Positions 290 to 20,629 of a stretch of 20,629 bases of DNA are shown here, piece after piece. The stretch spans positions 592,312-612,940 of the forward strand of contig WELB01000015.1 in NCBI GenBank assembly GCA_009602725.1. The letters run 5' to 3'. Origin of the DNA: Spirogloea muscicola. Taxonomy: Eukaryota > Streptophyta > Zygnematophyceae > Spirogloeales > Spirogloeaceae. The first letter of the stretch is position 1. Each line of letters opens with the position of its first letter. Below the pieces are notes generated by a model, which saw nothing but the letters and a program-made list of their open reading frames with translations, was not told the origin of the DNA and did no database searches. Both the position numbers and the translations under genes were made by a program.

Positions 290-425
290 CCCCCCCTTCG
301 GCTTCCGACCGTTGGGCGCCCGCGCCCGCCGCTGGAGCCGCCGCCGTCGCCGCCGGCGGCGGCAACGGCGGCGGCGCGAGCGGCGGGCGCGGGCGCCCAA
401 CAGTCGGGAGCGGGGGGGGGGCGGG
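290..425. repeat. GC-rich inverted repeat / long hairpin
   Basis: Positions 311-333 and 379-401 are exact reverse complements (23 bp, starting gttgggcgcccgcgcccgcc). The GCC/GGC-rich interior continues the symmetry almost to the centre near 356. Outside the arms the symmetry goes on with mismatches (ccgaccgttgg against ccaacagtcgg). All ORFs across it are low-complexity Pro/Arg/Ala and probably do not code. It may be a CpG-rich promoter-like segment or a palindromic insertion; nothing here decides. Confidence 0.75.
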
Positions 426-1730: not shown

Positions 1731-5407
<3,677 letters not shown>

Positions 5408-5544
5408 GGCGCCGGCGCCGGCGCCCGGGGCAGGGGAGGAAGCCGAGGCCGGCGACTGGCCCGCCTCCTCGGCCCTTGGTCCGGCAGATGGTTGTGAGCA
5501 AGTAAGCTCATCCCAAGGGATGTGTTCCCGGCTGAGATGTGCTT
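5408..5544. other. 5' flank of the CIPK gene
   Basis: About 140 bp lie between the CIPK start codon and the first retrotransposon remnant upstream. GC-rich next to the start codon (gccggcgccggcgcc), then ordinary sequence. No TATA box or other named site is clear. The 5' UTR and promoter must lie here or within the retrotransposon debris beyond. Confidence 0.4.
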
Positions 5545-5822
5545 GCCAGCTGCATATCTATCTTTCTTTGGCTCTTCATCAACGTGCAGGGCGCGCTCTA
5601 AGTCAGGCCTCCGGCTTTCGTGGCGGCGCTCCAGCTCCCCAAGTTAGCTTGTCAGATTTGTTTGTGCTCACCCGTGGGTACTAATGTCATCTTAGGTACC
5701 TTAGATTAGGTCTCCGTCTTATGTAGCATTGTTTAGTCTGCACTCGACTCTGCCTGAACAATGTATTGGCTTGAATTGGCCTCCCTTTCAATTCATGTGC
5801 CCCGCGCGCCTTCTCTCTCTTG
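5545..5822 (+). mobile_element. Non-LTR retrotransposon 3' end (FVLTRGY type)
   Basis: The plus frame ends LALHQRAGRALSQASG ... SLSDLFVLTRGY with TAA at 5682-5684. This is intermediate between the RLLSRGY and YVLTRGY types in the variable linker. The tail runs through ctgcctgaacaatgtattggcttg to ccccgcgcgccttctctctc at about 5820, shared with 968-1040 and 12672-12742. Only about 45 codons of the ORF remain. It sits upstream of the CIPK gene, in opposite orientation. Confidence 0.7.
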
Positions 5823-6068
5823 CGACGACGAGTTTCGGCCTGTTTGCAGCGTGCCCAGGCTAATGCCTTGCACCAGAAAGCTGGGCGTGCTCTAGTTGGT
5901 GGCAGAAGGGCTTCTTATCTGACATCTAGTACTCAGGCATCGTTTAGCAACCTTTATGTTTTGACCCGCGGTTACTGAGCGGGTCATTCTGCTGTAGGTT
6001 ATGTAGGTCTTAGATGTGCTTGCCTTTGTACTTGGCCATTTGGCCTTCGTTTGTTTCAAATACACGAA
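5823..6068 (+). mobile_element. Non-LTR retrotransposon 3' end (YVLTRGY type)
   Basis: Starts directly after the tail of the previous copy. The plus frame reads LHQKAGRALVGG ... SNLYVLTRGY with TGA near 5976. Its tail (gagcgggtcattctgctg, tgtgcttgcctttgtacttggcca, caaatacacg) matches the tail of the copy at 11796-12182. It lacks the upstream part (LENIASLGYARRED) that the three short elements contain, and has small substitutions throughout. Confidence 0.7.
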
Positions 6069-6082
6069 AATTCCTTCCCAAG

Positions 6083-6467
6083 GAATGCGTGTATATTAAG
6101 AGATGGGGAGGCCATGTGTGGCCAAGTACAAAGGCAAGCACATTGGACAAATGTACGTCACCTGCTGCTAAGCTGACCCGCTCAGTAACCACGAGTCAGC
6201 ACATAGAGGTCGCTAGCTGACGCTCGAATACCGGACGGCAGTTGACTAGCTCTTGTGCCAGCAGCTAAGGCTCGACCAGCTTTCTGATGCAGAGCATACG
6301 CCTGAGCTCGTTGCAGACAGGTTGACACTCAATTCGCAGAAATGACAGATAGGCTGCCGGCATACCTATCTGGGCTGGGAGCATATCCTCGCGTCGTGCA
6401 TATCCCAGACTCGCTATGTTCTCGAGTAGGGTATGGAAGCGAGGACCCAAGCAGCCGAAAGTGTCGA
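6083..6467 (-). mobile_element. Short non-autonomous retroelement, copy R1
   Basis: A 385-bp copy, in inverse orientation, of the elements at 11796-12182 and 17310-17688. Its own 5' end is at 6467 (tcgacactttcggctgcttggg read on the minus strand) and its 3' end at 6083 (tatacacgcatt). The minus frame resembles the retrotransposon C-terminus (ARREDMLPAQIGMPAAYLSF) but has a 1-nt deletion where the others read FLRRRVSTCLQRAQA, so it is frameshifted. Its 5' end lies 9 bp from the ambiguous base at 6476. It is tail-to-tail with the copy at 5823-6068. Confidence 0.85.
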
Positions 6468-6475
6468 TTGCGGCC

Positions 6476-6476
6476 N
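6476..6476. other. Ambiguous base (N)
   Basis: The only N in the window, in the context gcggccnggccgac, exactly between the R1 flank and the first base of the 270-bp array. It may be a simple miscall or a collapsed join or gap. The linkage between the left third (1-6475) and the right part rests on this point. Confidence 0.9.
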
Positions 6477-9422
6477 GGCCGACAACCGAGTCATCGGCCG
6501 CAGACTTCTTAAGGAAAAAGCGTGGAAATTTGCCACATTATGTGAGTAGCGAAACCATGTCAATGTGGCTAGATTAGAGAAAATGCTTCACATAGAAACC
6601 ATGCATCTCCCACTGGGCCGTAGGCTCCACAATAAATAAGGCCCCTTCAGAAGAGGGGTCGACCAGCGACGCCAGAGGGTCGTCAGCCAGTAGTTGCCTG
6701 GCTCTGGCCTCCACCTCTGCCTCAAAACGGCTTAAGTCCTCAAAACGGCCGACAACCGAGTCATCGGCCGCAGACTTCTTAAGGAAAAAGCGTGGAAATT
6801 TGCCACATTATGTGAGTAGCGAAACCATGTCAATGTGGCTAGATTAGAGAAAATGCTTCACATAGAAACCATGCATCTCCCACTGGGCCGTAGGCTCCAC
6901 AATAAATAAGGCCCCTTCAGAAGAGGGGTCGACCAGCGACGCCAGAGGGTCGTCAGCCAGTAGTTGCCTGGCTCTGGCCTCCACCTCTGCCTCAAAACGG
7001 CTTAAGTCCTCAAAACGGCCGACAACCGAGTCATCGGCCGCAGACTTCTTAAGGAAAAAGCGTGGAAATTTGCCACATTATGTGAGTAGCGAAACCATGT
7101 CAATGTGGCTAGATTAGAGAAAATGCTTCACATAGAAACCATGCATCTCCCACTGGGCCGTAGGCTCCACAATAAATAAGGCCCCTTCAGAAGAGGGGTC
7201 GACCAGCGACGCCAGAGGGTCGTCAGCCAGTAGTTGCCTGGCTCTGGCCTCCACCTCTGCCTCAAAACGGCTTAAGTCCTCAAAACGGCCGACAACCGAG
7301 TCATCGGCCGCAGACTTCTTAAGGAAAAAGCGTGGAAATTTGCCACATTATGTGAGTAGCGAAACCATGTCAATGTGGCTAGATTAGAGAAAATGCTTCA
7401 CATAGAAACCATGCATCTCCCACTGGGCCGTAGGCTCCACAATAAATAAGGCCCCTTCAGAAGAGGGGTCGACCAGCGACGCCAGAGGGTCGTCAGCCAG
7501 TAGTTGCCTGGCTCTGGCCTCCACCTCTGCCTCAAAACGGCTTAAGTCCTCAAAACGGCCGACAACCGAGTCATCGGCCGCAGACTTCTTAAGGAAAAAG
7601 CGTGGAAATTTGCCACATTATGTGAGTAGCGAAACCATGTCAATGTGGCTAGATTAGAGAAAATGCTTCACATAGAAACCATGCATCTCCCACTGGGCCG
7701 TAGGCTCCACAATAAATAAGGCCCCTTCAGAAGAGGGGTCGACCAGCGACGCCAGAGGGTCGTCAGCCAGTAGTTGCCTGGCTCTGGCCTCCACCTCTGC
7801 CTCAAAACGGCTTAAGTCCTCAAAACGGCCGACAACCGAGTCATCGGCCGCAGACTTCTTAAGGAAAAAGCGTGGAAATTTGCCACATTATGTGAGTAGC
7901 GAAACCATGTCAATGTGGCTAGATTAGAGAAAATGCTTCACATAGAAACCATGCATCTCCCACTGGGCCGTAGGCTCCACAATAAATAAGGCCCCTTCAG
8001 AAGAGGGGTCGACCAGCGACGCCAGAGGGTCGTCAGCCAGTAGTTGCCTGGCTCTGGCCTCCACCTCTGCCTCAAAACGGCTTAAGTCCTCAAAACGGCC
8101 GACAACCGAGTCATCGGCCGCAGACTTCTTAAGGAAAAAGCGTGGAAATTTGCCACATTATGTGAGTAGCGAAACCATGTCAATGTGGCTAGATTAGAGA
8201 AAATGCTTCACATAGAAACCATGCATCTCCCACTGGGCCGTAGGCTCCACAATAAATAAGGCCCCTTCAGAAGAGGGGTCGACCAGCGACGCCAGAGGGT
8301 CGTCAGCCAGTAGTTGCCTGGCTCTGGCCTCCACCTCTGCCTCAAAACGGCTTAAGTCCTCAAAACGGCCGACAACCGAGTCATCGGCCGCAGACTTCTT
8401 AAGGAAAAAGCGTGGAAATTTGCCACATTATGTGAGTAGCGAAACCATGTCAATGTGGCTAGATTAGAGAAAATGCTTCACATAGAAACCATGCATCTCC
8501 CACTGGGCCGTAGGCTCCACAATAAATAAGGCCCCTTCAGAAGAGGGGTCGACCAGCGACGCCAGAGGGTCGTCAGCCAGTAGTTGCCTGGCTCTGGCCT
8601 CCACCTCTGCCTCAAAACGGCTTAAGTCCTCAAAACGGCCGACAACCGAGTCATCGGCCGCAGACTTCTTAAGGAAAAAGCGTGGAAATTTGCCACATTA
8701 TGTGAGTAGCGAAACCATGTCAATGTGGCTAGATTAGAGAAAATGCTTCACATAGAAACCATGCATCTCCCACTGGGCCGTAGGCTCCACAATAAATAAG
8801 GCCCCTTCAGAAGAGGGGTCGACCAGCGACGCCAGAGGGTCGTCAGCCAGTAGTTGCCTGGCTCTGGCCTCCACCTCTGCCTCAAAACGGCTTAAGTCCT
8901 CAAAACGGCCGACAACCGAGTCATCGGCCGCAGACTTCTTAAGGAAAAAGCGTGGAAATTTGCCACATTATGTGAGTAGCGAAACCATGTCAATGTGGCT
9001 AGATTAGAGAAAATGCTTCACATAGAAACCATGCATCTCCCACTGGGCCGTAGGCTCCACAATAAATAAGGCCCCTTCAGAAGAGGGGTCGACCAGCGAC
9101 GCCAGAGGGTCGTCAGCCAGTAGTTGCCTGGCTCTGGCCTCCACCTCTGCCTCAAAACGGCTTAAGTCCTCAAAACGGCCGACAACCGAGTCATCGGCCG
9201 CAGACTTCTTAAGGAAAAAGCGTGGAAATTTGCCACATTATGTGAGTAGCGAAACCATGTCAATGTGGCTAGATTAGAGAAAATGCTTCACATAGAAACC
9301 ATGCATCTCCCACTGGGCCGTAGGCTCCACAATAAATAAGGCCCCTTCAGAAGAGGGGTCGACCAGCGACGCCAGAGGGTCGTCAGCCAGTAGTTGCCTG
9401 GCTCTGGCCTCCACCTCTGCCT
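6477..9422. repeat. 270-bp tandem array, 10.9 copies, visually identical
   Basis: Copies begin with ggccgacaaccgag at 6477, 6747 and then every 270 bp; the last starts at 9177 and stops after cctctgcct at 9422, giving 10 x 270 + 246 bp. I saw no difference between copies. On the minus strand each unit is 90 codons with two TAA stops. One 77-codon open stretch starts CGKFPRFFLKK, passes EVEARARQLLADD, and ends HGFYVKHFL. Its last part is the same sequence as the end of the exon at 9555-9274, so the array arose by repeating the 3' part of that exon plus its downstream sequence. Each unit has an internal direct repeat (tcaaaacgg twice, 18 bp apart). Function unknown; it may be satellite DNA or an assembly product. 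Confidence 0.97.
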
Positions 9423-9555
9423 TGGACCATTCTGGAGCAATGGCATATCCTACATCTCTCCAGACTTTCAACTCATCTTCCTTCAACTGCGCCAACGCCT
9501 CCTATTTCTTAAGGTTCATTTGTGTCCAACGAATTTTGTCTTTCTCGTAATTTCT
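9274..9555 (-). pseudogene. Probable downstream exon of the Cys-rich gene, with in-frame TAG
   Basis: After an acceptor (caatctcttcag at 9567-9556) the minus strand reads RNYEKDKIRWTQMNLKK, then TAG at 9504-9502. It continues open in the same frame: EALAQLKEDELKVWRDVGYA, then APEWSKAEVEARARQ, to a TAA at 9276-9274. From 9422 downward it enters the 270-bp array. The start phase (0) fits the phase-0 donors of the three Cys-rich exons upstream. Two readings are possible. Either the true end is NLKK-stop, or CAG (Gln) has become TAG and this is a decayed exon. The protein is unrecognised; GYAIAP followed by an acidic helix recalls the start of phytanoyl-CoA dioxygenase-like proteins only very weakly. 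Confidence 0.5.
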
Positions 9556-9574
9556 CTGAAGAGATTGCAGAGGC

Positions 9575-9715
9575 ACAGAGAGAGAGAAGAAGACACAGAA
9601 ATCTAAAGTTAGTACTTCGTCTGAGACTTGGTTTGAAGTAACTCTTCACCTTTGAGATTGAATGAGAAAGTTTAAGTGAGATGAAAGGCAGAAAGAGAGA
9701 GAGAGAGAGAGAGAT
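9575..9715. repeat. GA/CT microsatellites in the intron
   Basis: An uninterrupted (GA)n run of about 11 repeats lies at about 9691-9713, and a shorter AG-rich stretch at 9577-9591. On the minus strand they are CT runs upstream of the acceptor at 9556 and would act as a long polypyrimidine tract. Confidence 0.85.
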
Positions 9716-9771: not shown

Positions 9772-10056
9772 CTTTTTGCGATCGTGTTGGTAGTCACAGG
9801 CTGCACAGAAGCGGTAGTAGTAGTACTTGTTGTCGTCTGGTCCTTTCTTCATCATACCATTGAGTCTCCAGTCCAATTGAGTTGTTCAAGCCCTGCAACA
9901 TTTCGCGGGAGGTGCATACGTGATGACCTCCGAATCGTCCTTGCTTAGCCTATTCCAGTTCCTTTGCCCAAGCGGAGTCAAAACGACTCCGCCAAAGGAT
10001 TCAGGAGGAGGTGCAGGTGCCGCCATGGTCGAGGACGTCGACGGCAGATCACGTCC
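9772..10056 (-). pseudogene. Cys-rich exon, copy A, stop at a conserved Cys
   Basis: 285 bp, same splice sites (ttggattcag acceptor, AAAAAG|gtatgc donor). The frame keeps to the others except for TGA at 9888-9886, exactly where copy C has the second Cys of KNCKAC (TGT). After it the frame is open and conserved: LDWRLNGMMKK, NKYYYYRFCAAC, DRKK. As it stands, the copy cannot give a full zinc-binding module. It is the copy nearest the downstream exon at 9555. Confidence 0.7.
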
Positions 10057-10340
10057 CTGAATCCAAAAAGAGACAGATTTCAGCGTAAGCGAACAACGTG
10101 GTACACAAACCGAGTGAGAAGTTGGTCGAGTCGGCCAGGCTGACAAGGAAAGCAGTCAATGGAAAAATCAGCGGTCCAAATCTGAACCTGTGACACACAA
10201 GCAAATGTGTACTACCTTGTCCACAAGATTGATGGCTTGCGCAAGGTCAGTGGATGCCAAATGACCTGTAGTTGTCTACACGTGCGATAGGCAGCACAAT
10301 ATCATGGGCCAAGGATTGTTCAGAGTGCAGGAGTACATAC

Positions 10341-10632
10341 CTTGCCGGTATTTTTTGGCAATGCACAGGATGAACATTGGGCCTTGTAGTAGAAATACTG
10401 TTTCTTTGCTGTCTTGTTTGTATTCAGCATACCATTGAGTCTCTAGTCTAATTGCGTTGTACAAGCCTTGCAAGTCCTCGGGGGAGGTGCATACGTGATG
10501 ACCTCCAATGCGTCCTTGCTCAGCCTACTCCAGTTCCTCTTCCCAAAGCGGAGTCAAATCGACTCCGTCATAGGAGTCAGGAATTGGAAGAGGAGGAGCC
10601 ATGCTCGAGGCCGTCGACGCGAGATCACGTCC
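10341..10632 (-). pseudogene. Cys-rich exon, copy B, frameshifted and interrupted
   Basis: Same acceptor and donor positions as copy C, but 292 bp long. One extra A in cccaaagcgg (about 10546) shifts the frame after VDLTPL. Farther on, the conserved Trp codon of the DWR motif is TAG (10445-10443). Both CX2C pairs survive (CKAC, CSSC), as does the KQYFYYKAQ block. The donor AAG|gtatgt is intact. Inference: the exon decayed after duplication; it would have to be skipped for any product. Confidence 0.75.
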
Positions 10633-10916
10633 CTGAATCCAAAAAGAGACAGATGTCAGCGTAAGCAAACAACGTGGTACACAAACCGAATGAGAAGTTG
10701 GTCGAGTCGGCCAGGCTGACAAGGAAAGCAGTCAATGGAAAAATCAGAGGTCCAAATCTGAACCTGTAATACACAAGCAAATGTGTACTACCTTGTCCGC
10801 AAGATTGATGGCTTGCGCAAGGTCAGTGAATGCCAAATGACCTGTAGTTGTCTACTCTTGCGATAGGCAGCACAATATCATGGGCCAAGGATTGTTCAGA
10901 GAGCAGAAGTACATAC

Positions 10917-11207
10917 CTTACCGGTCCTTTTTGGCCGTGCACAGGATGAACATTGGGCACGGTAGTAGAAGTACTTGTTCTTCACTGTCTTTACTTTATT
11001 CAGCATACCACTGCGTCTCCAGTCCACTGGCGATGTACAAGCCTTGCAGTTCTTCGGAGGAGGTGAATTAGTGATGTCTTCCAACGCGCCCTTGCTCAAT
11101 ATCCTCCAGTTCCTTCTCCCAAGCGGAGTCAAATCGACTCCGCCATAGGATTCTGGAGGAGGAGGAGGAGGTGCCATGCTCGAGGACGTCGACGCGCGAT
11201 CACGTCC
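10917..11207 (-). CDS. Cys-rich (CX2C-X28-CX2C) exon, copy C, open
   Basis: 291 bp between an acceptor (tttttgggttcag) and a donor (AAG|gtatgt), phase 0 on both sides and fully open. The protein runs GRDRASTSSSMAPPPPPPES, then VDLTPLGRRNWRILSKGALE, NCKAC, DWRRSGMLNK, NKYFYYRAQCSSC, and ends RTGK. The two Cys pairs have zinc-binding spacing (CX2C-X28-CX2C). ATG at 11177-11175 is kept in all three copies and may be the real start, with the exon beginning inside a 5' UTR. The next exon is probably 9555-9274. I do not recognise the family. This is the only copy of the three without a stop or frameshift. Confidence 0.55.
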
Positions 11208-11407
11208 CTGAACCCAAAAAGAGACAACTGTCAGCATAAGCAAACAACGTGGTACACACACCGAATGAGAAGGTGGTCGAGATGGCCAGGCTACAAGGAT
11301 AGCAGTCCGTTAAGAGACCAACACCGTTGCTCGCAATGTCAACGGGAAAATGAGAGGTCCAAATCTGAACCTGCAACACACAAGCAAATGTGTACTACCT
11401 TGTCCAG

Positions 11408-11795: not shown

Positions 11796-12182
11796 TCGAC
11801 ACTTTCGGCTGCTTGGGTCCTCGCTTCCATACCCTACTCGAGAACATAGCGAGTCTGGGATATGCACGACGCGAGGATATGCTCCCAGCCCAGATGGGTA
11901 TGCCGGCAGCCTATCTGTCATTTCTGCGACGTCGAGTGTCAACCTGTCTGCAACGAGCTCAGGCGTATGCTCTGCATCAGAAAGCTGGTCGAGCCTTAGC
12001 TGCTGGCACAAGAGCTAGTCAATTGCCGTCCGGTATTCGAGCGTCAGCTAGCGACCTCTATGTGCTGACTCGTGGTTACTGAGCGGGTCAGCTTAGCAGC
12101 AGGTGACGTACATTTGTCCAATGTGCTTGCCTTTGTACTTGGCCACACATGGCCTCCCCATCTCTTAATATACACGCATTTT
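11796..12182 (+). mobile_element. Short non-autonomous retroelement, copy R2
   Basis: Closest to an intact copy of the short family. It runs from tcgacactttcggctgcttggg to tatacacgcatttt. A plus frame is open across it (RFHTLLENIASLGYARRED, FLRRRVSTCLQRAQAYAL, HQKAGRALAAGTRAS, SASDLYVLTRGY) with TGA at 12080-12082. This is homologous to the last 100 or so codons of a retrotransposon ORF. The tail after the stop is about 100 bp (gagcgggtcagcttagcagc, tgcctttgtacttggcca). It has no RT of its own and would need one in trans. It sits inside the 3' tail of the older copy at 11408. Confidence 0.85.
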
Positions 12183-16350: not shown

Positions 16351-17309
16351 GTGGTGGCCAAGCCGCGCGCGAGGGGGGAGCCCCCGAGGCGACACCGGCA
16401 CCCCGGATACCCACGGAGAAAGTGCTCGCCCATTGAGGACGAAGCCCTCTTCCCGTACGGAAAGTGGCTCTCCCCAAAGCGGGCGGTGGCTGTGATTGGC
16501 CAGCCCAGGGGATAGAAACAGGCCCTTCCACTCTACGGCCATGGCTACGAGAGAAGTGGCTCTCGCAACGAAATTGCGCGCCCCATCGAGAAGCTGGCAA
16601 GCGGCCAGCCCTTGAAGAATGCCCTCCACAGAGCCAAAAAGATGACGGAAAGAAACACCACACCGCTAGACACGAGACGACGCCAAGAGAAGCCCACTTC
16701 CCACTTCCCACGAGAGAGCAGCAGCAATTCCGAGTAGCTCGCAGCTGGGAAAGAAGAAGTGGCTCACCCAATGGGGAGCGGTGAAGAAGTGAGCTCTTCC
16801 AGAAAAGGGTGCGCGGTGCTGTGAAAGAAAACTGCGCCCATAGAGAAGAGGGGCTGGCAGAGGCCAGCCCTAAAAGAATGGACAAAAGTGGAGTGGTTTT
16901 CTCCCAAAGGCCAGCCCAGAATCAGAATGGACAAACAAACAGCCCAGAAAGCATGAACAAGGTCCAAAGGGGCCGAAGGAACAACAGCTCTTCCAAGTCA
17001 AAGGCAGTGGCTGTGAGTGAAAGAAAGTGGCTCCCAAAGGGGGCAAAGGCTGTGCCCAAAGCAATATATGCCCAAAGAAGGGCGCCAAAACCACACATCT
17101 CTGTAAGAGACTACACCGAAAAAGGTTTGAAGGGACTGGAGGCTGGGGCTGGGGCTCAGAAAGAATGAACAAGTTCCAAAGGGCATAAAGGCGCCAGAAC
17201 CACAAAGCTATGCAAGAGACTACAGAGAGTGGGAGCTTAGTAACCCCAAAAGAAGTCCAGAAGAAAAGACATCCAGGCCAGCGACAGAGAGACGAAGCTC
17301 TTACAAAGG
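16351..17309 (-). mobile_element. Retrotransposon tail-derived, modular pyrimidine-rich region
   Basis: No gene. On the minus strand it repeats the words of retrotransposon tails. At 16888-16830: tgtccattcttttagggctgg, then ccagccc, then tctatgggcgcag. At about 16446-16420: gtcctcaatgggcgagcac. Also gttcattctttctgagcccc near 17170 and several copies of gagccactttc (near 16462, 17024; variants at 16556, 16757). This suggests several degraded tails, or one long tail built of repeated modules. Long minus ORFs across it are Leu/Ser/Phe-rich because of pyrimidine bias, not because they code. Confidence 0.5.
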
Positions 17310-17688
17310 AAAATGCGTGTATATTAAGAGATGGGGATGCCATGTGTGGCCAAGTACAAAGGCAAGCACATTGGACTAATGTACGTCACCTGCTGCTAAG
17401 CTGACCCGCTCAGTAACCACGAGTCAGCACATAGAGGTCGCTAGCTGACGCTCGAATACCGGACGGCAATTGACCAGCTCTTGTGCCAGCAGCTAAGGCT
17501 CGACCAGCTTTCTGATGCAGAGCATACGCCTGAGCTCGTTGCAGACAGGTTGACACTCGACGTCGCAGAAATGACAGATAGGCTGCCGGCATACCCATCT
17601 GGGCGGGGAGCATATCCTCGCGTCGTGCATATCCCAGACTCGCTATGTTCTCGAGTAGGGTATGGAAGCGAGGACCCAAGCAGCCGAG
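17310..17688 (-). mobile_element. Short non-autonomous retroelement, copy R3
   Basis: 379 bp, minus orientation. Nearly identical to R2 from cggctgcttgggtcc (17688) to tatacacgcattt (17310). The frame is open with FLRRRVSTCLQRAQAYAL and SASDLYVLTRGY, TGA at 17412-17410, so it lacks the frameshift of R1. Its 5' boundary is about 8-10 bp shorter than those of R1 and R2 (no tcgacacttt) and is followed by cccccc. It lies within pyrimidine-rich retrotransposon tail sequence of the same orientation. Confidence 0.85.
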
Positions 17689-18491: not shown

Positions 18492-20629
18492 TCAGTAATT
18501 CCTGCTGAGCAGCCGCAGATCAGAGATGCTAGGGTCCTGGAAGTGGGTCCCCTGGACAGAGCCAGAGGCAGCAGCTAGGGCTCTTCCGGCACGAAGGTGC
18601 AGCGCACGGGCCATGGACCTCTGCAACGAGACGGCCAAGCGCATGCGATACACTTGCGCCAGCGACCCGGCTGCAGGAAAGTCTACCGGCTCACCATGGA
18701 AGCGAGGGGCGATTGCGTGGCGGGCGAGCTGGTTAAGTAGCTCAAGCCACCGAGCGCCCAGTGCCCCATGGATGTCAATTGCCAACGGGAAGAACTCGTC
18801 TTCCGGCGGATGGTCGGCGTACTTGATCTCTTTTGCCCGAGCGGCGCAGGCGACCGCATACCCAGCCTTGGTGGCAGACTGGGCTGGGTGGGAGCGGTCG
18901 AATGCGTCGGTAGTCACCACGTCCAGAAGCAGACATGGCCCGCCAGCCTGTGGGGTGGCCACCAGGTCGACGCGACAAGCGTGGAGACCGTCGGCCCTTT
19001 CCTGGAGCAGCATGACGCCGGAGTGCTCCGCTGCCACCGCGAAGCCAGCCTCCACCAGGATGCCGTGCATCGCGTCCCGGAGGCGGTCGTGGGCCGCCGT
19101 CCTCTCGCCGCCGTGGGGACAGTGCAGGACGTGAGCAGCCAGCTCGCCAGGCTCGGCCCCTCGCTCGCCACACTGGCATTGAAGCACGCCCTGGAGGCAT
19201 GGAGGCGGCAGCCCCAGGAGCCGGTGGACGGCAGTGCGAAACACCTCATCTGGGAGGGTCAGGGCGTCAGTGATGGGGAGTGCCTGGAGCCACGCCGCTG
19301 CCCCCGGGGAGGAAGCCGATTGTAGTCTCGCGCGCCCGCGCAGGTCGGCCTCAGGGAGCTGCAGCACGGCGGTGGTGTAGGCGGCCTTGTCGATGACGGC
19401 CGCGAAGCGCGCTTGGACGTGCAGGTCAGCGGTGTGCCTGAGGTGCGCAAAGGAGACCGCCTGGCCGGCCATGTCAGGGTGCGCCGCGAGCAGCTCCTGG
19501 TGGGCGGTGCGAAGCGCCACCTGGAACGGCAGCGCGCCCTTGTCCACCTCCACCACCGCCTGCTCCAGTGCACGCCGGCCATGGACCATGAAGCGCTGAG
19601 CCACGGAGGCGGCAGTCTGCGCCCAGCTGCCGAGGTATGCAGCCCGGCATGAGCGGACGAGCGGGCGCAGGCCGAGACCCCCGTGGCTGATGGGTAGCGC
19701 CGCCTGGTGGATAGCGGCTGGCGACTGGGGGAAGCCCTAGTGGCGGACCAGGGCCGCCAAGCTCGCCACCATGCCCGCGTCGAAAGCCTCGTACGCCGCC
19801 AATGCCTCTGGGGACGGCGGAGTGGCCCGCGTCAAGTACTGGGGCCGCTGCCCGATGGCCTTGGTCAGCATGGCCAACGACAGCTGCATATCCTCCAGCT
19901 CGGGGAGCCGGGCCGCGGGCTGAAGGTGCTCCGCGAGGCGGGCTCGCAGCTGCCCCTCCACGAAGGCCGGCGTGCCGATGGGGACTCCCAGGAGGGGCGT
20001 GCCGATGGGGACTCCCAGGAGGGTGAAGCCGTCTGCCGGAGTCCGGCAGCCCGGGGGCAGCGCCAGGGTGGGTAGGATCTCGCCAGGGGACCAAGCCGCG
20101 CACTTCGCCGGCCGGATGGTCAGGCCGAGGGTGGCCAGCTGCTGCGTGAAGTGCCGAAGGCCGCCGCCACGTCTTCCGGAGGGCCGACTATGGTTGTGTC
20201 GTCCACGAAGGTGGGGAGAAGGACTCCTGGGTGGGCCGCTGCGGTAGCCAGCAGAGCCCGGTTGTGCGCGAGCGCAAAGAAGAAGCCGGCGAGGGGGTCC
20301 CCTTGCCGCGTGCCCGAGCGGGACTGCAGGACCTCCACCTGATCACCCCCTGTCCACCAGAGGAGGTCGCTGGGCTGACCGTACCCCAAGCGGAAAAAGG
20401 GGACCAGGGAGGGGAAGGAGGCCCGGAGCTCCTCCGCAATGCAGGCGCGCTCCACGGTGTTGAAGGCGTTTGCCACGTCGACGGCAAGCACCAGCCAGCT
20501 CGGGTGCTGGTCCAAGGTTGCACGGACCCCGTGGACGACGGCCTCACCCCCACTCCGCAGCCCCGCGCCGTACTGGTGTGGCGCCATGTGCACCTGCGCC
20601 GGCCCCGCATGCTGCTGCCAGAGTACGCG
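18492..20629 (-). mobile_element. Non-LTR retrotransposon ORF: reverse transcriptase + restriction-like endonuclease, partial and broken
   Basis: The minus-strand ORF enters at the window edge. RT blocks: VDVANAFNTVE (about 20490-20455), SGTRQGDPLAG, and the catalytic box FVDD (20209-20198). A frameshift near 20150 follows AAAFG; the other frame continues FTQQLATLGLTIRPAKC. A 27-bp tandem duplication lies at 19970-20023 (LLGVPIGTP twice). An in-frame TAG at 19739-19737 follows ALVRH; the same frame goes on through ALPISHGGLGLRPL. Then come a Cys/His knuckle CQCG ... HVLHC (about 19185-19130) and an endonuclease core CRVDL ... LLLDVVTTDAF (about 18980-18905). The end is LHLRAGRALAAASGS ... SISDLRLLSRNY. 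RT followed by a knuckle and a PD-(D/E)XK-like nuclease is the layout of R2/NeSL/Utopia-type LINEs, which cut target DNA and prime reverse transcription there. The start lies outside the window. Probably dead as read, but with few lesions, so fairly young. Confidence 0.88.
19970..20023 (-). repeat. 27-bp tandem duplication inside the retrotransposon ORF
   Basis: Two exact copies of a 27-bp unit (gcgtgccgatggggactccc...) at 19970-19996 and 19997-20023. It is in frame, adding nine residues (LLGVPIGTP twice) after the RT catalytic domain. It may be a feature of this subfamily or a private slip in this copy. Confidence 0.9.

What the first reader, a model, noticed from the sequence alone, without database searches (positions are those of the whole stretch)
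6476..9422. Perfect 270-bp array of 10.9 copies starts exactly at an N
All copies look identical, which needs either very recent expansion, strong homogenisation, or an assembly artefact. The single N of the window sits at the left edge (gcggccnggcc), where one expects a collapsed or gap-filled join. The true copy number could be very different.
Basis: partly seen in the sequence, partly recalled or inferred. Interest (0 to 1): 0.75.

Follow-up and report, generated by a model that had tools for sequence, protein, structure and literature searches.

The report
Repeat array with unreliable copy number
A short scrambled piece of a decayed gene is drawn as eleven perfect copies beside an unread base; the repeat is probably real, but its length and perfection are most likely products of how the genome was assembled.

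Summary
In detail: 6477-9422 repeats exactly every 270 bp (10.9 copies, no mismatch), and the window's only N is at 6476. The genome search found the unit only here, plus three partial relatives. The unit joins two parts of one small gene family head to head: a C-terminal "tail" on + and part of the preceding exon on -, plus a short linker. Left of the N is the 3' end of a high-copy LINE-like element; ten other copies, picked because they reach this point, all continue past it, so N lies where element and array meet. Short N runs elsewhere in this assembly often touch perfect repeats (5 of 11 others against 81 of 4,000 random places), though short ones: an 83-base poly-A is the longest. The linker was found only inside this array, so at least one real tandem junction probably exists. 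A simulated short-read walk loops endlessly from about 3-4 true copies and reproduces the sequence seen. Best reading: a real tandem repeat in a decayed gene copy, with copy number and perfection set by assembly. No reads were available. Side finding: this family's 3' end has inverted pieces at 3 of 10 places found, one a 98% palindrome.

The parts
6477..9422 (.). Tandem array, unit 270 bp, 10 full copies plus 246 bp, no mismatch
6476..6476 (.). Single N, the only one in the window, at the junction of LINE-like fragment and array
6477..6636 (+). First copy, 'tail' part: C-terminal coding part of the gene family (63% amino-acid identity for this copy, 67% for the ten others, to C54:478001-478576), with stop codons
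6638..6724 (-). First copy, 'exon' part on the opposite strand (99% to C18:476846-476932)
6725..6746 (.). Linker leading into the next copy's tail; its last part (6736-6746) already belongs to the tail in frame
9338..9540 (-). Rightmost exon part, continuing out of the array into non-repeated sequence; the family's exon, with one in-frame TAG
6084..6475 (-). 3' part of a high-copy LINE-like element, cut off on its 5' side at the N; the same family lies at 11796-12180 and 17305-17687
9843..11307 (-). Older tandem repeat of the upstream exon region of the same gene copy (period 576, 2.5 copies, 87%)

Best explanation
This is a real but unresolved tandem repeat in a decayed copy of a small gene family. 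In this copy the gene's 3' end was scrambled: the C-terminal tail and part of the exon before it are joined in opposite orientation, and this joined piece was duplicated in tandem. A 5'-truncated LINE-like element abuts it. The assembly could not cross the junction of element and array. From the unique right side, a walk went round the 270-bp loop until it met a length limit or a mate-pair distance, then left a single N. Shown: exact periodicity, place of the N, composition of the unit, the linker found only in the array, enrichment of short N runs at perfect repeats in the sample, and that such a walk yields this very sequence. Inferred: that short reads and a gap filler or similar step were used, and that the true copy number is at least 2 (about 3-4 or more if a majority-rule walker was used) but otherwise unknown.
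For: Exact periodicity, with N at the edge. In 10 of 10 other copies fetched (chosen from those that match up to the N) the LINE-like element runs on past the N position, so N is at a junction. Of the other 11 short N runs in 235,729 non-N bases, 5 touch a perfect tandem repeat of at least 12 bp, against 81 of 4,000 random places (Fisher p = 1.7e-6). One of them is an A83 run ending at a single N. Short N runs occur about once per 20 kb, so an exact touch at either array edge by chance is about 1e-4. A simulated majority-rule k-mer walk reached its limit in 15 of 15 runs with 4 or more true copies and 1 of 3 runs with 3, stopped in 3 of 3 with 2, and one looped walk cut to 2,946 bp was identical to 6477-9422. 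The only other array with a TRF score above 1,000 outside the window (L032, period about 135) carries differences between copies and touches no N.
Against: No reads, no depth and no assembly method were available. None of the 11 other short N sites touches an array of a long unit; for perfect runs of 30 bp or more only 1 of 11 does (15 of 4,000 controls, p = 0.04). A stop caused only by a length limit would fall at a random phase of the unit, yet the array ends where it shares GGCC with the LINE side (5 of 270 phases begin with GGCC, about 2%); this suits a real junction there. A 269-base A run in L031 has no N beside it, and L032 holds a perfect 303-bp stretch of period 136 without an N, so perfect runs are not always marked and can occur inside ordinary sequence. 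The sample is only partly random.
Confidence: 0.68

Rival explanations
1. The array is real and about as long as drawn: a very young expansion of the 270-bp unit by unequal crossing-over or rolling-circle amplification, with the LINE-like element genuinely ending at its edge; N is one uncalled base.
For: The array edge falls at a phase sharing GGCC with the LINE side, as expected of a real junction with microhomology; if N is G, the element's homology runs on two more bases. 5' ends of this element vary from copy to copy. The same gene copy already holds an older 576-bp tandem repeat.
Against: No difference in 2,946 bp, whereas the other large array in the sample outside the window differs between copies. 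N exactly at the edge, and short N runs enriched at perfect repeats.
Confidence: 0.2
2. Pure artefact: a single copy (tail + / exon -) with chimeric or misassigned reads supplying the linker.
For: Left and right flanks are each compatible with a single copy; assemblies hold such errors (general knowledge).
Against: The exon-linker junction was found nowhere else in the assembly at up to 3 mismatches, so no other placed locus supplies it; gaps and unplaced sequence cannot be excluded. A one-copy model does not loop in the simulation (3 of 3 runs). The end of the linker reads on into the tail in the family's frame (VLKTADNRVIGR against VLMTADKRPIGR), so it looks like gene-derived sequence.
Confidence: 0.07
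3. A functional coding repeat: each unit is an exon plus intron of a repeat protein (270 = 3 x 90).
For: In one minus-strand frame each unit has an open stretch of about 80 codons.
Against: Part of that frame is the antisense of the family's tail. In the family's own frame the search reports stops in the tail matches (1 TAG and 2 TAA in ten, 1 TAG and 1 TAA in the first) and a TAG in the flanking exon. Pfam finds nothing for the reference copy's matching ORF. Splicing was not tested.
Confidence: 0.03

Closest known systems
Unresolved tandem repeats in short-read assemblies (loop in the local assembly graph, as described for Pilon, PMC4237348, passages seen)
   Same: Perfect repeat longer than a k-mer; copy number cannot be determined from short reads; an unresolved base sits at the edge.
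   Different: Pilon, by its paper, does not try to close such loops; here copies were written out, so some other step or tool was used, unknown to me.
Overfilled or negative gaps (PBJelly paper, PMC3504050, passages seen)
   Different: No evidence that PBJelly or long reads were used here.
Minisatellites / large-unit tandem arrays (general knowledge)
   Same: Head-to-tail copies of one unit.
   Different: The unit is an inverted junction of two coding pieces of one gene family, and there is no variation at all between copies.

Membership tests
Tandem repeat array | Head-to-tail copies beyond chance | tested here: met
Tandem repeat array | Copy number confirmed by spanning reads or depth | not testable with these tools
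   no reads held
Assembly loop or gap-fill artefact | Perfect periodicity touching an unresolved base | tested here: met
Assembly loop or gap-fill artefact | Same signature elsewhere in the assembly | tested here: inconclusive
   5 of 11 other short N runs touch perfect short repeats (A83 the longest), but none touches a long-unit array
Assembly loop or gap-fill artefact | Tool and method known to write loops out | not tested
   species and assembly method not identified; two paper searches by scaffold number or assembly size gave nothing useful
LINE-like retroelement (left flank only) | Many copies with a common 3' part and variable 5' ends | tested here: met
   one search lists 40 full-length matches, the window's own included, with 2,502 first-look candidates of which 40 were scored; fetched copies diverge from one another at different points
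LINE-like retroelement (left flank only) | Reverse-transcriptase domain and target-site duplication | not tested
   only the 3' part was read; no family search of the element's ORF was completed (one search failed); the 5' side of the window's copy is the array and N, so both ends cannot be compared

The most novel reading that the evidence does not exclude
The array is a real, very young amplification that grew out of fold-back (palindromic) duplication: in this gene family the 3' end repeatedly turns back on itself, leaving a 98% palindrome at C136, an exon(-)/tail(+) remnant at C38, and here a centre-trimmed inverted junction that then amplified in tandem. That would be three stages of one process caught in paralogues.
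Probability: 0.13. Interest if true: 0.45.

Novelty: new member of a known kind. Interest (0 to 1): 0.18.

Why it matters
Mostly as a caution: in this assembly, a perfect long repeat beside a single N should not be read as biology or counted as copy number without reads. If the fold-back reading were right, paralogues of one gene would show how an inverted duplication turns into a tandem array.

Tried and rejected
Coding repeat protein: rejected, because the unit joins sense and antisense parts and the family frame holds stops. The other loci of the family also show stops at many of their matches (C18, C149, C179, C136, C127, C21, C38), so decay is not special to the window. Chance repeat: rejected. 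Copies elsewhere feeding the array: none found in the assembly. Palindrome inside the window's own unit: none of 20 nt or more in 6400-7100. Identifying the species or its assembly method: two paper searches, nothing useful; a CBL-interacting-kinase-like exon hints at the green lineage, not settled. The idea that single Ns are overlaps of abutting contigs: only 3 of 12 sites, the window's included, have a suffix-prefix match of 2 bases or more, one of them inside a GCC repeat, so it is not general. No domain: no Pfam family for the reference copy's C-terminal ORF and no PDB sequence match at E up to 1; matches of its upstream parts and of the window's upstream exon stayed below Pfam's cut-offs. 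Two paper searches for assembly methods gave listings; of four papers I saw passages only.

Full report
What is there. The window holds one tandem array at 6477-9422: period 270, 10.9 copies, no mismatch or indel. A letter-by-letter check gives exact periodicity up to 9422, and the only N of the window is at 6476, the base before the array. In the assembly (153,112,186 bases, 471 contigs; the window is C15:592312-612940) the search listed 14 matches of the unit: 11 at 100%, all in this array, and three partial relatives at C18 (87 bp, 99%), C38 (122 bp, 84%) and C54 (151 bp, 79%).

What the unit is made of. The relative at C54 (L003) has an open reading frame of 215 codons that contains both parts of the unit in one direction: an exon part followed by a C-terminal tail. 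In the window's unit, the tail (unit 1-160) is on the + strand and the exon part (unit 162-248) on the - strand, so the unit joins two pieces of one gene in opposite orientation, followed by a short linker. The rightmost copy runs on without a break into non-repeated exon sequence up to about 9540. In the family's frames the window's exon has one in-frame TAG, and the tail matches hold 1 TAG and 2 TAA (ten copies) or 1 TAG and 1 TAA (the first), so this gene copy looks decayed. Matches at several other loci of the family also hold stops. Just upstream on the same strand lies an older tandem repeat of period 576, 2.5 copies, 87%. No Pfam family matched the L003 C-terminal ORF and no PDB sequence did at E up to 1. 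Upstream exons gave only matches below the cut-offs, to short families of which several are zinc-binding.

The family. A protein search with 192 residues of the L003 ORF gave 39 matches at 10 places, 22 of them in this array and its edge. Reading the strands together: both parts lie in the same direction at C54 (two places), C21, C149 and C179 (5 of 10); only one part was matched at C18 and C127 (2 of 10); inverted pieces lie at C15 (this window), C38 and C136 (3 of 10). At C136 (L039) the region is a palindrome, 909-1570, arms about 98% alike with 6 bases between the inner arms. I did not test whether that palindrome is itself an assembly product; that its arms are not identical speaks for a real one.

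The left edge. Positions 6084-6475 belong to a high-copy element. The search listed 43 matches (2,502 first-look candidates, 40 scored); 40 of them cover the whole query, the window's own included, and the others of these 40 are at 98-99%. I fetched ten of those full-length copies, so they were bound to reach the N position. All ten hold the last 30 bases before it exactly, and all ten continue with the same bases beyond it for at least 27 bases, after which they diverge from one another at different points. The two other copies in the window stop matching 8 and 17 bases short of the N. One fetched copy (L018) has an open frame of 439 codons that ends in this 3' part. Variable 5' ends and this layout suit a LINE-like element; that is an inference, as I ran no successful domain search on it. 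So the N lies where this element's sequence stops and the array starts. The two sides share GGCC at the join. If N stands for G, the element's homology runs on for two more bases.

What Ns mean in this assembly. Over all stretches read (285,081 letters, 235,729 not N, window included) there are 12 short N runs: 11 single Ns and one NNN. Leaving the window's own out, 5 of 11 touch a perfect tandem repeat of at least 12 bp within 3 bases, against 81 of 4,000 random places (Fisher p = 1.7e-6). At 15 bp or more it is 4 of 11 against 35; at 20 bp, 2 of 11 against 26 (p = 0.0025); at 30 bp, 1 of 11 against 15 (p = 0.04). One is a run of 83 A that ends at a single N. Of five long homopolymers in the sample (20 or more A or T, 15 or more C or G), three touch an N, one of these a long N run, while a T28 and a run of 269 A in L031 do not. 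None of the other 11 sites touches a long-unit array. The sample is only partly random: 12 stretches come from one fixed position of different contigs, of which two were wholly N, and 11 from around matches of another query; the other 19 were chosen as relatives, neighbours or element copies. Control places lay in the same stretches; places within 30 bases of an N, window 6300-9600 and loci of up to 1,200 bases were left out. Long N runs may be gaps or withheld stretches. The window itself is bordered by N runs: 4,312 bases or more on the left, 2,171 on the right.

Can assembly make this sequence? I modelled the locus with 1 to 30 true copies, drew error-free 100-base reads and walked leftwards from the unique right flank with a 31-mer majority rule (0.7), three runs each. 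With one copy the walk passes through into the left flank. With two it stops as ambiguous (3 of 3). With three it loops in 1 of 3. With 4, 5, 6, 11 and 30 copies it reaches the set limit in 15 of 15. One looped walk (8 copies) cut to 2,946 bp is identical to 6477-9422. The parameters are mine and the real tool is unknown. The Pilon paper says that tandem repeats longer than K make loops in the local graph and that short reads hold no unambiguous copy-number information (PMC4237348, passages). GapFiller extends contig ends by k-mer overlap and closes only near the estimated gap size (PMC3446322, passages). The PBJelly paper describes overfilled and negative gaps (PMC3504050, passages). The RFfiller paper notes that gaps of a single base occur in a test set (PMC9575681, passages). 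I have no evidence that any of these tools was used here.

Why not a pure artefact. The exon-linker junction is found ten times, each between two copies, and nowhere else in the genome at up to 3 mismatches. The linker's last part continues the family's tail in frame (VLKTADNRVIGR against VLMTADKRPIGR in L003). Something in the reads must therefore have joined exon, linker and tail. The simplest source is a true tandem junction, hence at least two copies; unplaced or withheld sequence cannot be excluded as a source.

What speaks against my reading. The array ends at a phase that shares GGCC with the left side; 5 of 270 phases begin with GGCC, so a stop at a random length would do this in about 2% of cases. 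No other N in the sample touches a long-unit array. L032 holds a perfect stretch of 303 bp with period 136, without an N, inside an array whose other copies differ. These facts keep a real, long, young array possible (0.2).

Verdict. The array is real as a feature of the sequence and probably real as a repeat, but its 10.9 copies and its perfection are most likely set by the assembly. It is an ordinary unresolved repeat in a decayed gene copy beside a retroelement. The more unusual thing nearby is the repeated inversion of this gene family's 3' end, at 3 of the 10 places found.

Noticed in passing
L039:909-1570 (G000:C136, 274108-274769): Near-perfect palindrome (98% arms, 6-nt centre) made of the same gene-family segment that is scrambled in the window.
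   Followed up: partly
L002:1467-1792 (G000:C38): Another paralogue with exon part on - directly followed by tail on +, i.e. an inverted arrangement with other breakpoints.
   Followed up: partly
L031:2896-3164 (G000:C3): Run of 269 uninterrupted A in the middle of sequence without any N; an assembly extension product or an extreme homopolymer.
   Followed up: no
window 9843-11307: Tandem repeat of period 576 (2.5 copies, 87%) of an upstream exon region with cysteine pairs that look zinc-binding.
   Followed up: no
window 5830-6330: Region that matches its own reverse complement (71%, 509 columns): two element 3' tails facing each other.
   Followed up: no
window 291-421: Region that matches its own reverse complement over 131 bp (87%).
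   Followed up: no
window 5111-5557 and 3583-3909, - strand: Parts of a protein kinase (Pfam Pkinase, below the cut-off); the first is closest to plant CBL-interacting kinases in the PDB.
   Followed up: no
window 18492-20342, - strand: GC-rich open frames whose end resembles, by eye, the C-terminus of the LINE-like element's ORF; no Pfam hit.
   Followed up: no
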